A stretch of 64,000 bases of DNA, from contig CALUUI010000001.1 of assembly GCA_944323925.1 (NCBI GenBank), forward strand, positions 1 to 64,000, in the 5' to 3' direction. This document shows positions 34,208-55,728 of this stretch, piece after piece. A program made the position numbers and the translations under genes. The notes below the pieces were generated by a model. It ran no database searches and had not been told where the DNA came from. It saw only the letters and a list, made by a program, of their open reading frames with translations. Origin of the DNA: Candidatus Gastranaerophilales bacterium (GTDB lineage: Bacteria > Cyanobacteriota > Vampirovibrionia > Gastranaerophilales > Gastranaerophilaceae). Within the stretch, counting starts at the first letter, position 1; each line of letters opens with the position of its first letter.

Positions 34208-34843
34208 CTATAATTTAAAATATTGTTTAGCCTTATTAATTAATCCTTTGCCAGATTTATTTAATAAATTGTAGCCTAGTTTTACAATTAATCCTGTTAT
34301 TAAACCTAAAACAACTCCAACAATTGTAGCATCAGGTTTGGAATCGCTTAAAATGCTGTTTGTGTCGTAAAGGTCTTTATATTGTTGCTCAAGATAGTTT
34401 GCTTTAGCTTCTAATTGTGGATAGTTTGTATTTACCTCATTAATAGAATTTTGCATTTTTTGTATATTCTGACTTGTTTCTTCCATTCCTTTGATACGAT
34501 TGTTGATTAACTCACGTAGGTTGTATATATCTTTAAAAGTTTGATAAGATTCATTCCGTAGTGCATGATATTCTTGCAACATAACCCATTTATTATTGTA
34601 ATTATCAGTATAAATTTGTTGAGCTTTGATAACGGGTGATTTTTGAGTGTAAGTTAGTTCTTGTGAGTTTTGTGTTCCGTTAGATTTTTTAAAGGTGTCT
34701 TTCCCCTGGTTATTAGCTAGGTTTGCGAATGAAGATAATAATGTTAAAGTAAAAATTGACGAATAAGCAAGGTTTGTTGCTTTATGGTTAATTTTAAAGC
34801 CTTTATAATTTGTCTCAGTTTTATTAATTGCATTTATTTTCAT
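34208..34843 (-). CDS. Unrecognised membrane/coiled-coil protein, paralogue A
   Basis: The 211-residue protein has a short N-terminal tag (MKINAINKTETNYKGFK), a first hydrophobic helix (about 24-43), the motif KAQQIYTDNYNNKWV, a long helical/coiled-coil middle and a second hydrophobic helix (about 170-195), then a basic tail. The gene 3 bases upstream encodes a paralogue with the same plan, so the two likely arose by tandem duplication and may form a hetero-oligomer. The topology suggests two membrane helices with a coiled coil on one side. No known family is recognised. Confidence 0.7.
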   Translation of the reverse strand: MKINAINKTETNYKGFKINHKATNLAYSSIFTLTLLSSFANLANNQGKDTFKKSNGTQNSQELTYTQKSPVIKAQQIYTDNYNNKWVMLQEYHALRNESYQTFKDIYNLRELINNRIKGMEETSQNIQKMQNSINEVNTNYPQLEAKANYLEQQYKDLYDTNSILSDSKPDATIVGVVLGLITGLIVKLGYNLLNKSGKGLINKAKQYFKL

Positions 34844-34846
34844 TAT

Positions 34847-35515
34847 TTATTCCTTATTATTCGTTAATAGATTTTCTTCAGGAGAGATTTCCTTTTTGTT
34901 TATTCTATTTTGTTTTATTAATCTTCCAATACCAAAAGGTAATATAAACCCACATATAAAACCTCCTATCATATAGGGTAAAAGTTTTTTTTCTAATGAG
35001 TGATACGTACTAATTTCATTCTCAAGATACATATTGTAGCTTTGAATTCTTATTGCTACATCATTTAGTGCTTTAATTGCTTCATTATATTGTTTTTCGA
35101 CAACAAGCGAATAATTATCAAGTTGCTCATCCTGCTCAACTATTTCCTCATATTTAGCTTCTGTATCTTTTAATTCTTGTTTTCTTTCTTCAGCTTCTTT
35201 TTCAACTTCTCTATAGTGTCTATATGGAACCCATCTGTTTCCATACATATCAGTGTAAATAAATTGTGCTTTATTTACTTTATTATCGTTTGGTTTAAAT
35301 ATTGTATTTTCTATCTTTGCTTCTTCTGTATTTTCGTTTGATTTTACAAAAATATCTTTGTTATTAGCAACAGAGGATAACAGTGACAGAGTAAACAGTG
35401 CAGAATAAGCAAATTTCGCAGGCTTATTAAGTAATTTCCCTGCAGAACCGTAATTTATACTATTTTTTATATTGCCTCTGCTAATATCAACCCCGTTAAT
35501 AGCCGATAGCTTCAT
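34847..35515 (-). CDS. Unrecognised membrane/coiled-coil protein, paralogue B
   Basis: The 222-residue partner of paralogue A: N-terminal tag (MKLSAINGVDISRG), first hydrophobic helix (FAYSALFTLSLLSS, matching AYSSIFTLTLLSS in A), the motif KAQFIYTDMYGNRWV, a Glu/Lys-rich coiled coil and a second hydrophobic helix (MIGGFICGFILPFGIGRLI). AAGGAG precedes the ATG, with a TATAAT box about 30 bases upstream. A and B are separated by 3 bases. Function unknown. Confidence 0.7.
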   Translation of the reverse strand: MKLSAINGVDISRGNIKNSINYGSAGKLLNKPAKFAYSALFTLSLLSSVANNKDIFVKSNENTEEAKIENTIFKPNDNKVNKAQFIYTDMYGNRWVPYRHYREVEKEAEERKQELKDTEAKYEEIVEQDEQLDNYSLVVEKQYNEAIKALNDVAIRIQSYNMYLENEISTYHSLEKKLLPYMIGGFICGFILPFGIGRLIKQNRINKKEISPEENLLTNNKE

Positions 35516-47954: not shown

Positions 47955-49421
47955 ATGTTTAAACAAAAAATGCAATATGTAATAAAATCAGCTCTAATGG
48001 ATGAAAGACAGGAGCTTGAGGATTTACTCAATGAAATGTCGAATTCCGGTTGGGATTTGTATGGCATGCATGAAGTTGAAAGAAAAGATGGAATATATTT
48101 TGATTGTATATTTGTGCGCCAAAAAGATGAAGAAGAAAAACAAGAATTTGATGATGTCGTTAAGATAAAAAGTTTCAAAAATCAGATGGAAAAAATGTTT
48201 GCATCATCTCTATCTCCTTATGCAACCTGTAAGGAATTGCAAATTAAAATAAGAGATCAAAAGGAGATTATTTCTAAGATTAAATATCAGTTGGAAAATG
48301 ATGCTTTAACAATTAAAGAAAAAGAGTTATTAAATAAGCAGCTTTCTGATGAGATAAACAGATTTGATTCCCTAAAAGCATCGTTGGTAAAAGAGATTTC
48401 TCCTGATAGTATGTATTCATCTTTAGCTAAAGATAAATATGTAATAAATTTATCCGATGAATTGATTGAGACAGTTATAAATGATGTAGATGATAATTTG
48501 TTGGCAGAAACAGTAAAGGTTCGTCAAAGATTAGCTGATACGTTAGGGTATGTTATCCCAAATATTGTTTTTTCAAACGAAGAAGTTCTTGATGATAACG
48601 AGTTTAATATCGTTTTACACGGTATTGAGCTTATAAAATGTTGCGTTTTCCCTGGTAAAGTTTGTATTTTTAAAGATGAACTTGATGGGTATAAAAAGAA
48701 AAAAGATGATATTCATACCAAGGATTTTATCACAGGAAAAGATATATTCTGGATTGATGAAGAAAAAGCTCGTGATTTTTGGGTAAATAAAATTACTCCT
48801 GTTCAATTTATTGCAAGAGCTTTAGAGTTTGTTTCTGTTAAAAATGTTGATGAAATCTTGGATTATAATGCGGTAAATAAATATATGGAAATTGTGCAGG
48901 AGCATAATTCTTTCTTAATAAATAATATTTATCCTGATTATATTTCAGCTGCTGAAATAAAGTATATTTTGGCATCTCTAATCAGAGAAAAAGTTTCTGT
49001 GAAAGATATAGTTTATATTTTTGAAAAGATTAATGATTTTTCGTCAGAAGAATCAAAAGATCATTTGATAGAAAAATTGCGTTTATCTATGAGTAAGCAG
49101 ATTTTAAAAGATATTCAAGTTGGTGAAAGTATTAAAGCTATTGAATTATCATCAAAGACAATAGAAAACTTCTTTGAATCATCATTGTGCGCAGAAGATG
49201 AGGGAGTCGTAAAGATTGATGGCGCAATTGTAGAAAAAATGGTTAAAAAGATTAAAAAACTTGCCGCTGAAGCCAATGTAGATGAGATTATATTATTGGC
49301 TCCTTATGAGATAAGACACATGACTTTTTTAATATTCTCGGAATTTATTAATAATATGAGAGTTATTGCATTTGAAGAGTTGGGACAAAATACCGAGATT
49401 GAGACTATTGGTGAGGTTTAG
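47955..49421 (+). CDS. Soluble FlhA-C-like protein fused to a DUF4177-like domain
   Basis: The 488-residue protein has no membrane segment. Residues 5-55 look like a DUF4177 domain (LEDLLNEMSNSGWDLYGMHE ... CIFVRQK). A coiled coil follows (about 75-155). Residues from about 165 to the end follow the cytoplasmic domain of the flagellar/type III export gate protein FlhA: VRQRLADTLGYVIPNIVF, FNIVLHGIEL, WVNKITPVQFIARALEF, AEIKYILASLIREKVSVKDIVYIFEKI, LRLSMSKQI and the closing FEELGQNTEIETIGEV. In FlhA this part docks chaperone-substrate complexes and is attached to eight membrane helices, absent here. It may be an export regulator or a repurposed docking platform. The assignment is from pattern matching by eye. 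Confidence 0.7.
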   Translation: MFKQKMQYVIKSALMDERQELEDLLNEMSNSGWDLYGMHEVERKDGIYFDCIFVRQKDEEEKQEFDDVVKIKSFKNQMEKMFASSLSPYATCKELQIKIRDQKEIISKIKYQLENDALTIKEKELLNKQLSDEINRFDSLKASLVKEISPDSMYSSLAKDKYVINLSDELIETVINDVDDNLLAETVKVRQRLADTLGYVIPNIVFSNEEVLDDNEFNIVLHGIELIKCCVFPGKVCIFKDELDGYKKKKDDIHTKDFITGKDIFWIDEEKARDFWVNKITPVQFIARALEFVSVKNVDEILDYNAVNKYMEIVQEHNSFLINNIYPDYISAAEIKYILASLIREKVSVKDIVYIFEKINDFSSEESKDHLIEKLRLSMSKQILKDIQVGESIKAIELSSKTIENFFESSLCAEDEGVVKIDGAIVEKMVKKIKKLAAEANVDEIILLAPYEIRHMTFLIFSEFINNMRVIAFEELGQNTEIETIGEV

Positions 49422-53996: not shown

Positions 53997-54025
53997 TTGT
54001 AAATTTTTAAGAAGGTATCTATAAT
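53997..54025 (+). promoter_or_regulatory. Promoter and long leader of the glycine-zipper/AAA+ operon
   Basis: TTGTAA, a 17-base spacer and TATAAT lie 125 bases before the first gene. The leader (about 54032-54149) contains TAGGTC and its complement GACCTA (around 54045 and 54079) enclosing about 28 bases, and several TTGCA-type repeats, so it may be structured. Confidence 0.5.
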
Positions 54026-54149: not shown

Positions 54150-54533
54150 ATGAGGATTTGTCCAATTCAGATTCAAAATTATTATCAAAGACAAAATTAT
54201 TACAAATGTGATAACATTATGGCATCAGAGAAGTCTTTATTTGTAAATGAAAGTATAGCGCAGCCATCTTTTAAAAATGATGCAGGAGCATTAAAAGGAA
54301 TGATTAAAGGAGGACTTATAGGTGCTGCGGTTGCTGGTGCTATAGTTTTGACCGGCGGACTTGGAATTGCAGCCTTAGGTGCTACAGGTGCATTTGTAGG
54401 TGGGCTTGCTGGAGTTGGTGCTAATATTGGTGGTATTATTGGATCAAAGAATGATAGTGATGACATTAGTGATGATATAAAACGTTTTTGTAATAAATTT
54501 AAAGATAAAATAAAGGGTAGTGATAATAAATAG
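54150..54533 (+). CDS. Glycine-zipper membrane protein
   Basis: The 127-residue protein has a polar N-terminal half and a 60-residue glycine/alanine-rich hydrophobic stretch with repeated small-xxx-small spacing (GMIKGGLIGAAVAGAIV; GGLAGVGANIGGIIG), able to form two tightly packed membrane helices, followed by an acidic/basic tail. AAGGGG precedes the ATG. Such glycine-zipper domains occur in pore-forming, bacteriocin-like and outer-membrane proteins. It lies 28 bases upstream of the AAA+ gene on the same strand and is probably its functional partner. No family name can be given. Confidence 0.65.
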   Translation: MRICPIQIQNYYQRQNYYKCDNIMASEKSLFVNESIAQPSFKNDAGALKGMIKGGLIGAAVAGAIVLTGGLGIAALGATGAFVGGLAGVGANIGGIIGSKNDSDDISDDIKRFCNKFKDKIKGSDNK

Positions 54534-54561
54534 TAAAAAATATTAATTTAATTAGGGTAAA

Positions 54562-55728
54562 ATGAAAGTAAATATAATCTCCAACACAAACATTCATAGA
54601 AATAATTTAAATTTTAAGAGTACAAACAGAACAGGAGAAGAAGTTCCGTCTTATTTGATTTTTAATGATCGTCTGAAGCAGCTTAAAACAGATGAAGATT
54701 ATAAAAAAATGCAGTTAGATCAGAATGAAAGAATGATTCTGGTCGGGGCGTTGCAGTTTTTGCTATTAGTTGCTTGCGCAGTAAAATATTTGTTTAATAC
54801 AACATCCGGGAAACGGGGCAATGCTCTTGATACGTCAACTTATAAGCCTTTGGTACGCCAGTTTGAATCTTTAAAGGAAAATGAACTTATTCCTACTGTT
54901 GAGACTTGTAAAAGTATAAATAAGGATTTAAAAGACTTGTTGATGTTGAAACTTAGTCTATCAAAACAAAGCGTGAAATCAAATTCCCCGCAAGATGAAG
55001 CAGGCAGGATGCTATTGTATGGACCTGCAGGCGTTGGAAAATCGTTTTTTGCAAAGATTTATGCAAAATCTTTAGATGCGGAATATTTGGAGGTATTGTA
55101 TTCGGATTTTAATTCAAAGTGGGTTGGTGAAGGCGTTGAAAACTTAAAAGAAATTTTTGAACAGATTTTAGCTGTCGGAAAAAATACCCCTGAGAAAAAG
55201 TATGTAGTTGTTTTTAACGAGGTGGATACGCTTGTTTTGCCAATGGAAAAGCTAGCGAAAGATGTTTCCTCAGGTCATTATATCAGCAAAATTGAAGAGC
55301 GCTCTGTCGTTTTGAATTACTTGGAACGGCTAAAAGAACAGGCACCTAATGTTACGGTAATTGGTACGACAAATGTTTCACCTAAAGGTAACTCACTGGA
55401 TAAAGCGGCAATGAGCAGATTCCAGAATATTATTGAAATCCCTTATCCTGACAGAGATTGTCTGTTTGAAGCAATTAAGTCTTATTTAAGGCGAATGAAA
55501 ATAAATGATGATTTTATAAATACAAATGAAGTAGAAATAAAAGAGTTAGCAAGTAAATTAGAGGACAGAAAATTTTCATTCAGAAATCTTGAAAATATGG
55601 TTAAGAAGTCTATGGATTATTATAGACAGGATATTTATCATGGAAAAGGTGCTGAGTTTAAAATGGAGTATCTTAAAAAAGGTGAAAACTCTGTTAAGCT
55701 TTCTGAGGGAGAATTGGATATTCCATAA
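54562..55728 (+). CDS. Membrane-anchored AAA+ ATPase with Asn-Glu Walker B
   Basis: The 388-residue protein has a polar N-terminal tag (MKVNIISNTNIHRNNLNFKS), one membrane helix (about 58-78) and a single classical AAA domain: Walker A GPAGVGKSF (154-162), pore-loop segment SKWVGEG (about 185-191, as in the spastin/Vps4 group), Walker B VVVFNEVD (N219-E220 instead of Asp-Glu), sensor-1 VIGTTN (about 267) and AAMSRF. There is no protease domain, so it is not FtsH. The catalytic glutamate is kept but the magnesium-coordinating aspartate is asparagine, which may slow ATP turnover. It probably remodels or extracts membrane proteins; the upstream glycine-zipper protein is the obvious candidate client. 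Confidence 0.8.
   Translation: MKVNIISNTNIHRNNLNFKSTNRTGEEVPSYLIFNDRLKQLKTDEDYKKMQLDQNERMILVGALQFLLLVACAVKYLFNTTSGKRGNALDTSTYKPLVRQFESLKENELIPTVETCKSINKDLKDLLMLKLSLSKQSVKSNSPQDEAGRMLLYGPAGVGKSFFAKIYAKSLDAEYLEVLYSDFNSKWVGEGVENLKEIFEQILAVGKNTPEKKYVVVFNEVDTLVLPMEKLAKDVSSGHYISKIEERSVVLNYLERLKEQAPNVTVIGTTNVSPKGNSLDKAAMSRFQNIIEIPYPDRDCLFEAIKSYLRRMKINDDFINTNEVEIKELASKLEDRKFSFRNLENMVKKSMDYYRQDIYHGKGAEFKMEYLKKGENSVKLSEGELDIP

What the first reader, a model, noticed from the sequence alone, without database searches (positions are those of the whole stretch)
54150..55728. Two-gene unit: glycine-zipper membrane protein plus membrane-anchored AAA+ ATPase with Asn-Glu Walker B
A small protein with a 60-residue glycine-zipper stretch is encoded 28 bases before a single-pass AAA+ ATPase with no protease domain. 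The ATPase has a spastin/Vps4-like pore segment (SKWVGEG), but its Walker B is FNEVD rather than DE. The pair has its own promoter and a long, possibly structured leader. A membrane-remodelling or extraction machine dedicated to one small membrane client is a reasonable reading. I know of no described system with this pairing.
Basis: partly seen in the sequence, partly recalled or inferred. Interest (0 to 1): 0.75.

Follow-up and report, generated by a model that had tools for sequence, protein, structure and literature searches.

The report
Membrane AAA ATPase with glycine-zipper partner
Two genera of uncultured gut bacteria carry a two-gene unit that makes a small glycine-rich membrane protein and a membrane-anchored protein-pulling motor whose active site has an unusual but fixed asparagine; the pairing is real and conserved, and what it does is not yet known.

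Summary
The window is from a Gastranaerophilales genome. A 127-residue glycine-zipper protein (54150-54533) lies 28 bp before a 388-residue AAA+ ATPase (54562-55728) with one transmembrane helix and no protease domain. The Walker B Asn is present in 47 of 47 subfamily members read. A small tagged glycine-rich gene lies beside 39 of 43 of them, against 2 of 273 ordinary genes (one is this pair) and 0 of 11 paralogous AAA genes. Paralogous pairs moved as units: the observed pairing is the best of 288 within-genome rearrangements.

Corrections: the leader is neither conserved nor structured beyond chance. The glycine-zipper protein is not a private client: its family occurs in 59 of 65 genomes of the sister genus, often without the ATPase. 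So the ATPase depends on the zipper protein, not the reverse.

Both proteins share an N-terminal tag found on about 3% of this genome's proteins (17 of 514, 1.25 in shuffles).

Best reading: a Cdc48/Vps4-like translocase that threads its cognate glycine-zipper membrane protein. New variant of a known kind; function inferred, not shown.

The parts
54150..54533 (+). gene of the glycine-zipper (GZ) membrane protein, 127 aa
   Evidence: homologous small gene beside 39 of 43 subfamily ATPases
54150..54278 (+). GZ residues 1-43: N-terminal tag (Met-Arg-Ile...Ser-Phe-Lys-Asn); its Phe41 codon is 54270-54272
   Evidence: Met1 and this Phe invariant in 35 of 35 aligned partners while the linker between them varies
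54279..54449 (+). GZ residues 44-100: hydrophobic glycine-zipper stretch, probable helical hairpin
   Evidence: AF2 model weak (mean pLDDT 54)
54450..54530 (+). GZ residues 101-127: charged polar C-tail
54562..55728 (+). gene of the membrane-anchored AAA+ ATPase, 388 aa
54562..54663 (+). ATPase residues 1-34: disordered N-terminal tag (LNFKS; Phe18)
   Evidence: pLDDT < 50; F-[KRQSTE]-x motif in the first 75 aa of 34 of 43 relatives
54736..54801 (+). ATPase residues 59-80: transmembrane helix
   Evidence: helix 44-80; 41 of 43 relatives
55021..55044 (+). Walker A, residues 154-161 (GPAGVGKS)
   Evidence: Lys160 43 of 43
55117..55131 (+). pore loop 1, residues 186-190 (KWVGE)
   Evidence: residue 187 Trp 36, Tyr 5, other 2 of 43
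55207..55227 (+). Walker B, residues 216-222 (VVFNEVD); Asn219 codon 55216-55218
   Evidence: Asn 43 of 43 and in the 4 further members read; Glu220 43 of 43
55372..55374 (+). sensor-1 Asn271
   Evidence: 43 of 43
55417..55422 (+). Arg286-Phe287: the single remaining arginine-finger candidate (AMSRF)
   Evidence: Arg286 43 of 43; residues 284-285 are Met/Leu/Val and Ser/Gly, not Arg
55582..55584 (+). Arg341 (SFRNL), sensor-2-like position
   Evidence: Arg in 42 of 43, the other has no residue there
53997..54025 (+). promoter-like consensus match upstream of the unit (weak)
   Evidence: not significant against shuffles

Best explanation
The unit makes a small inner-membrane protein that self-associates through a glycine zipper (GZ) and a single-pass, membrane-anchored AAA+ motor of the classic (Cdc48/Vps4/Msp1-like) type. 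The motor assembles on the cytosolic face, grips its cognate GZ protein through an aromatic pore loop, probably starting at the polar C-tail, and threads it with ATP so as to take apart, extract or re-set GZ assemblies. With no protease domain the product is released or passed on. The invariant Asn in place of the first Walker B acid probably tunes Mg/ATP handling without abolishing hydrolysis, because the catalytic Glu, Walker A Lys and sensor Asn are kept. Shown here: genes, architecture, conservation, pairing, co-inheritance, fold class. Inferred: hexamer, GZ as the substrate rather than an adaptor, topology, direction of threading, effect of the Asn, biological purpose.
For: GZ gene beside 39 of 43 subfamily ATPases against 2 of 273 genes of >=250 aa in this genome's sample (one is this pair), 5 of 537 in 11 other genomes and 0 of 11 paralogous AAA genes (where the finder was used; that finder gives 35 of the 43). 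Distances of partners correlate (r = 0.825, n = 35; best of 288 within-genome swaps). 26 of 27 sister-genus genomes with the ATPase have a GZ hit (counted). Catalytic set intact: K160, E220, N271, R286 each 43 of 43. Trp or Tyr in pore loop 1 in 41 of 43. Model pLDDT 85; nearest solved folds NVL, FIGNL1, p97, spastin, Vps4 (VIA Z about 22-23, rmsd 2.5-3.1, about 250-260 residues aligned, ties), with Msp1 among Foldseek's matches. Transmembrane helix in 41 of 43, more net positive charge on its AAA side (+2.6 against +0.2).
Against: Linkage and co-inheritance are also expected of neighbours that never touch. GZ genes are common without the ATPase, so GZ works without the motor. Some intact members lack an adjacent GZ (L055, and the first of two ATPases in L072). 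No complex was modelled, and the GZ model is poor (pLDDT 54). Only one arginine-finger candidate remains, and the Asn could mean weak or regulatory ATPase activity. Two members lack the pore Trp/Tyr (L042, L052).
Confidence: 0.45

Rival explanations
1. The GZ protein is an adaptor or membrane platform: its zipper oligomer recruits or regulates the ATPase, whose real clients are other membrane proteins.
For: GZ-like proteins also lie beside other proteins (a tagged PRK-type kinase at C19 of this genome; a ~700-aa protein in two genomes of different families), as a shared module would. The ATPase seldom occurs without GZ.
Against: The ATPase has its own anchor, so it needs no recruitment to the membrane. 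GZ stands alone at the flhB-clpP locus in several genomes.
Confidence: 0.2
2. GZ proteins are bacteriocin- or pore-forming-toxin-like, as CdzC/D of Caulobacter or TelE, and the ATPase protects the producer by pulling GZ out of its own membrane or keeping it export-competent.
For: Glycine zippers are a feature of pore-forming toxins (passages of PMC10434224, and PMC5380434). GZ are short, tagged, multi-copy and variable. Weak family hits to the Ssp4 T6SS effector family (2 of 35 members, best E 0.0032) and HblD (1 of 35, 0.0038), too weak to count.
Against: GZ without the ATPase is common, so the ATPase is not a required antidote. No exporter was seen in the neighbouring ORFs that I read, but I did not annotate them all. 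The weak hits can be composition alone.
Confidence: 0.15
3. Both proteins are exported. The shared N-terminal tag would be a secretion signal (for instance for the type III-type gates of these genomes), and the pair would act in another cell as a membrane effector and an AAA motor.
For: The tag is shared by both and by other proteins, 17 of 514 ORFs of this genome's sample in all; strict or looser carriers include effector-like types: pentapeptide repeats, an APH/kinase-like protein, a HAD-like protein, other AAA proteins. Two full FHIPEP gates are present.
Against: The tag does not clearly track either gate: 4 of 384 ORFs in genomes with the flagellar-type gate and 2 of 749 in genomes without it (shuffle means 0.9 and 1.8); 0 of 345 in one gate-bearing genome. 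190 of 191 genomes have a gate, so presence or absence cannot test it.
Confidence: 0.1
4. The two genes travel together without acting together (linked cargo).
For: Linked neighbours also show correlated trees; both families are confined to nearly the same genera.
Against: Pairing kept in many different neighbourhoods, in both gene orders, while 0 of 11 paralogous AAA genes are paired.
Confidence: 0.08

Closest known systems
Msp1/ATAD1 (mitochondrial outer-membrane AAA extractase)
   Same: N-terminal membrane helix, linker, one classic AAA domain, no protease; Msp1 chains among Foldseek's matches; a plausible membrane-protein extraction role
   Different: Msp1 has two aromatics in pore loop 1 (W187, Y188; passages of PMC7018516); here the second is not aromatic in any of the 43. 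Asn in Walker B; a genetically paired small membrane protein; bacterial
Vps4 / spastin / fidgetin / Cdc48 classic AAA clade
   Same: Fold (VIA Z about 22-23), KWVGE pore loop, Pfam AAA
   Different: No Vps4_C or other accessory domain hit; membrane-anchored; Asn-Glu Walker B; one arginine-finger candidate; Arg in the sensor-2-like position
FtsH
   Same: Membrane-anchored classic AAA in bacteria
   Different: No M41 protease domain; one helix, not two (the FtsH count is recalled)
Cdz glycine-zipper bacteriocins (CdzC/CdzD, Caulobacter)
   Same: Small proteins (86 and 84 aa) with an N-terminal leader and extended GxxxGxxxG
   Different: Cdz comes with a type I exporter and an immunity protein with three predicted helices; here a AAA+ ATPase and a different N-terminal tag
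IetA/IteA anti-phage AAA ATPase
   Same: Weak AAA similarity (PADLOC IetA 1.7e-14; NCBIfam 39 bits)
   Different: Far below the NCBIfam cut-off (510 bits); generic AAA similarity; partner unlike the subtilisin-like one that I recall for that system

Membership tests
Classic AAA clade (PF00004) | AAA domain above the family cut-off with Walker A Lys, Walker B Glu, sensor-1 Asn | tested here: met
   72.4 bits against a cut-off of 21.2; K160, E220, N271 43 of 43
Classic AAA clade (PF00004) | Canonical Asp-Glu Walker B (recalled) | tested here: not met
   Asn-Glu in 47 of 47 members read
Classic AAA clade (PF00004) | Two arginine-finger Args (recalled) | tested here: not met
   Only Arg286 kept; residues 284-285 are Met/Leu/Val and Ser/Gly
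Msp1/ATAD1 | N-terminal membrane helix, one AAA domain, no protease | tested here: met
Msp1/ATAD1 | Both X1 and X2 of pore-loop motif K-X1-X2-G aromatic | tested here: not met
   X2 is Ala, Val, Ser, Gly, Thr or Ile in 41 of 43, Pro and Cys in the other two; criterion from PMC7018516
Vps4 | Vps4 C-terminal / MIT domains | tested here: not met
   not among the 16 Pfam families up to E 1
FtsH | M41 zinc protease domain | tested here: not met
   not among the 16 Pfam families up to E 1
Cdz-like glycine-zipper bacteriocin | Small protein with extended GxxxGxxxG and an N-terminal leader | tested here: met
   GxxxGxxxG in 34 of 37 partner proteins; N-terminal tag
Cdz-like glycine-zipper bacteriocin | Type I secretion genes and a multi-pass immunity gene alongside | tested here: inconclusive
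   none recognised in the ORFs around the window pair, but most were only read by eye
Cdz-like glycine-zipper bacteriocin | Kills cells lacking immunity | not testable with these tools
   experiment needed
Known glycine-zipper domains (PF05433 and others) | Pfam match above cut-off | tested here: inconclusive
   PF05433 in 2 of 35 partners, best E 0.0007; DoxX_2 in 3; DUF3482 in 2 (cut-offs not shown there); the window protein had only DUF3482 at 16.6 bits against a cut-off of 29.2

The most novel reading that the evidence does not exclude
A lineage-specific N-terminal tag (Met-Lys/Arg-Ile...Asn/Ser-rich linker...Asn-Phe-Lys-Gly) is a sorting or export signal carried by about 3% of this bacterium's proteins. 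The GZ/ATPase unit would be one of its cargoes: a two-part device in which a self-assembling glycine-zipper protein is placed in a membrane, perhaps another cell's, and a co-sorted or co-delivered AAA+ motor with a fixed Asn-Glu active site drives or controls its assembly.
Probability: 0.12. Interest if true: 0.9.

Novelty: new variant of a known kind. Interest (0 to 1): 0.6.

Why it matters
A whole clade of AAA+ motors in which Asn has replaced the magnesium-site Asp of Walker B while the other catalytic residues stay would be a natural test of what that Asp is for. A single-pass AAA+ motor with a small genetic partner is also a minimal, two-gene version of Msp1-type membrane extraction, which could be rebuilt in E. 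coli. If the glycine-zipper proteins turn out to be self-assembling pores, the pair would show a new way for bacteria to handle them. The shared N-terminal tag gives a first handle on protein sorting in Gastranaerophilales.

Tried and rejected
Strain-specific Walker B change: rejected, Asn in 47 of 47. In nine related tagged AAA outgroup sequences Asn occurs in 2 and Asp in 7 (read), so the exchange also happens elsewhere in the lineage.

Structured or regulatory leader: rejected.

FtsH-like protease: rejected. Anti-phage system: only generic AAA similarity.

Private client: rejected as stated, because GZ is a wider family.

Type III link of the tag: I compared tag counts in five genomes taken to have the flagellar-type FHIPEP gate (4 of 384 ORFs) and six without it (2 of 749) (gate types, counts). 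Neither class clearly stands out; inconclusive. A first, looser tag pattern gave 35 of 504 against 17.8 in shuffles; it caught signal peptides and enzymes, and I replaced it by the stricter one, so the pattern was tuned on this genome. With it 17 of 514 remain against a mean of 1.25 (max 5 of 200 shuffles).

Counting choices: one search gave 40 of 43 ATPases with a partner (its last step stopped with a script error after that count; redone). Reading the hits I removed two (L071 downstream, L055 upstream: not partner-like) and added L070 (tagged 81-aa ORF with fewer glycines), hence 39. The two ATPases of L074 share one GZ. Without partner: L054 and L071 (truncated ATPases), L055, and the first ATPase of L072. 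The stricter finder finds partners for 35. Of 47 subfamily hits (5; 42 at E <= 1e-80) 44 sequences' loci went into; L039 and L066 (in-frame stops) and L056 failed its patterns, L058 (contig edge) was not given, and one further AAA gene caught in L068 (position 600) was dropped as not of the subfamily. The Walker B Asn was read in the four left-out hits later. A looser control found partner-like segments beside 35 of 232 genes, 14 with a tag-like start, so that criterion was too loose; the control quoted uses the finder.

Glycine-zipper structure: AF2 gave a poor model, not searched further. Fold matches are tied within 1 Z and show the clade only; no family is excluded by absence there. A PDB sequence search with the kinase-like tagged protein found nothing.

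Full report
WHAT IS THERE. The window is part of a 1.94 Mb, 99.9% complete genome. A close homologue lies in a record titled Candidatus Gastranaerophilales, the non-photosynthetic gut cyanobacterial order. On the + strand, 54150-54533 encodes a 127-residue protein and 54562-55728 a 388-residue AAA+ ATPase, 28 bp apart. Upstream, divergently, is an Orn/Lys/Arg-type decarboxylase; downstream a PpiC-type isomerase. The ATPase matches PF00004 (72.4 bits, cut-off 21.2); no protease domain is listed.

CONSERVATION OF THE WALKER B ASN. I collected relatives with the genome search: 5 of 7 genomes of the same genus and, in a sister genus (g25), 35 of 65 genomes at E <= 1e-60, of which 27 hold the close subfamily at 1e-80 or better, up to four copies each. 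Of 47 subfamily hits, 43 were aligned: position 219 is Asn in 43 of 43, Glu220 in 43, Walker A Lys160 in 43, sensor-1 Asn271 in 43, Arg286 in 43, Arg341 in 42 (the other has no residue there), pore residue 187 Trp in 36 and Tyr in 5. The other four hits, two of them with in-frame stops, also read Asn. So Asn-Glu is the rule of this subfamily. In nine more distant tagged AAA sequences it is Asn in two and Asp in seven. That Asp is canonical here is recalled knowledge.

PAIRING. 39 of the 43 ATPases have a small tagged gene with a glycine-rich hydrophobic stretch next to them on the same strand, upstream in most and downstream in some (how I reached 39 is told under Tried and rejected). Two of the four exceptions are truncated ATPases. 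With the stricter finder (35 of the 43 ATPases) the control rates are 2 of 273 genes of at least 250 aa in this genome's sample (one is the present pair), 5 of 537 in eleven other genomes, and 0 of 11 paralogous AAA genes. The pair sits in many different neighbourhoods. ATPase and partner distances correlate (r = 0.825, n = 35, Mantel p 2e-4), and when partners are swapped among paralogous pairs of the same genome, the observed arrangement is the best of 288. This shows that the two genes duplicate and move as a unit; it does not by itself show contact.

BUT THE SMALL PROTEIN IS NOT PRIVATE TO THE ATPASE. A profile of 35 partners hits 59 of 65 genomes of g25, up to 13 times in one, and 6 of 7 of the window's genus. 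Of the 27 g25 genomes with the ATPase, 26 have a hit; of the 38 without it, 33 do (counted). At one locus of g25 (flhB-like, a small membrane gene, GZ, clpP-like, metK-like; names from reading the ORFs) GZ stands without the ATPase in L124, L127, L129, L130 and L132, while L065 has ATPase and then GZ there. In this genome the second GZ copy follows a tagged PRK-type P-loop kinase. In two genomes of different families GZ sits by related proteins of about 700 aa (34% identity) with no Pfam domain above cut-off. The dependence is one-sided: the ATPase goes with GZ, GZ does without the ATPase. Both are narrow: the ATPase profile hits 2 of 50 genera of the order (31 of 335 genomes at 1e-50, some of them only by the more distant paralogues), GZ 5 of 50 (47 of 320 genomes at 1e-6, in three of which the hit lies in a large reading frame).

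ARCHITECTURE. In GZ, Met1 and one Phe are invariant (35 of 35), followed by Gly at +5, +9 and +13 (90% or more) and a last Gly-x-x-x-Gly. GxxxG pairs number 192 in 37 proteins against 110.9 (sd 7.5) in shuffles; the hydrophobic part has a median of 49 residues. The AF2 model is weak (pLDDT 54): hydrophobic helices and a C-terminal helix. The ATPase model is good (pLDDT 85): residues 1-34 disordered, helix 44-80, then the AAA part. Its nearest solved folds are NVL, fidgetin-like 1, p97, spastin and Vps4, tied at VIA Z 22-23; Msp1 is among Foldseek's matches. The AAA side of the membrane helix is more positive (+2.6 against +0.2 in 15 residues), which suggests a cytosolic AAA domain (inference).

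THE SHARED N-TERMINAL TAG. Both proteins begin with Met-Lys/Arg-Ile/Val-type residues, a polar Asn/Ser/Lys-rich linker and a short Phe motif (NFKS, SFKN; in relatives often NFKN or FKG). With a strict pattern 17 of 514 ORFs in 0.53 Mb of this genome carry it, against 1.25 (max 5) in 200 shuffles. The pattern was refined on this genome. Carriers include a Cdc48-like AAA protein, a HAD-like protein and two GZ copies; a pentapeptide-repeat protein and an APH/kinase-like protein carry looser versions. Outside g1 and g25 the strict tag is rare: 4 of 384 and 2 of 749 ORFs in two sets of genomes. The idea that it is a type III-type signal could not be tested, since 190 of 191 genomes have an FHIPEP gate.

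HOW IT MOST LIKELY WORKS. See Best explanation. The motor features (aromatic pore residue, intact catalytic Glu, membrane anchor next to a membrane partner) favour threading of the cognate GZ protein. The one-sided dependence fits a motor that handles GZ, or an adaptor role of GZ. A toxin-like role for GZ is possible because glycine zippers recur in pore-formers (TelE, CdzC/D, Tse4; passages read), but the common ATPase-free copies speak against the ATPase being a simple antidote.

KNOWN OR NEW. By architecture it works like Msp1, yet fails its double-aromatic pore loop (criterion from passages of PMC7018516; result). It is not FtsH or Vps4 by domain content. I found no description of the pairing, nor of an Asn-Glu AAA clade (listings and abstracts only; open-access library). 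I rate it a new variant of a known kind.

Noticed in passing
window 54150-54278 and 54562-54663; outside the window e.g. L095:16053-17154, L087:14522-16870, L105:14606-15613: Lineage-specific N-terminal tag (Met-Lys/Arg-Ile...NFKG/NFTG) on otherwise unrelated proteins, 17 of 514 ORFs under a strict pattern.
   Followed up: partly
window 47955-49421: Stand-alone FHIPEP (FlhA/SctV) C-terminal domain protein (PF00771, 2e-45, profile positions 321-656), about 5 kb upstream of the pair.
   Followed up: partly
L107:4794-10612 (G000 C13) and L106:41-3210 (G000 C10): Two full FHIPEP types, told apart by score. Flagellin was found in 6 of 6 checked genomes whose best FHIPEP match is of the C10 type (E about 1e-260) and in 0 of 12 whose best match is of the C13 type (E about 1e-218). 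The C13 type, with FliF and FliE, is thus a flagellin-independent export-gate remnant or system across the family. PMC4040986 reports partial flagellar gene sets in most Gastranaerophilales genomes then known (passage).
   Followed up: partly
L014, L016, L018, L020, L061: Tandem pairs of tagged membrane-type AAA genes related to the finding, with FDEID, FNEID, IDEID or VDEID Walker B where read, and no glycine-zipper gene alongside.
   Followed up: partly
L116:4983-6267 (G000 C19): Second glycine-zipper gene of this genome, beside a tagged PRK/uridine-kinase-type P-loop protein (PF00485, 1.6e-11).
   Followed up: partly
L162:3271-5424 (G263) and L135:2566-4671 (G198): Related ~700-aa proteins of unknown family (34% identity) next to glycine-zipper genes in genomes of different families.
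   Followed up: partly
L012/L066, L039, L054, L071: Broken or truncated copies of the ATPase, a sign of turnover of these units in the sister genus.
   Followed up: no
L163:10008-11945 (G175): Tagged 646-aa protein with a CHAP-domain match just below cut-off and PT repeats.
   Followed up: no
window 34208-34843 and 34847-35515 (- strand): Two adjacent small proteins with the same kind of N-terminal start (MKINAIN, MKLSAIN) and one hydrophobic stretch, of no known family; they do not meet the strict tag pattern.
   Followed up: no
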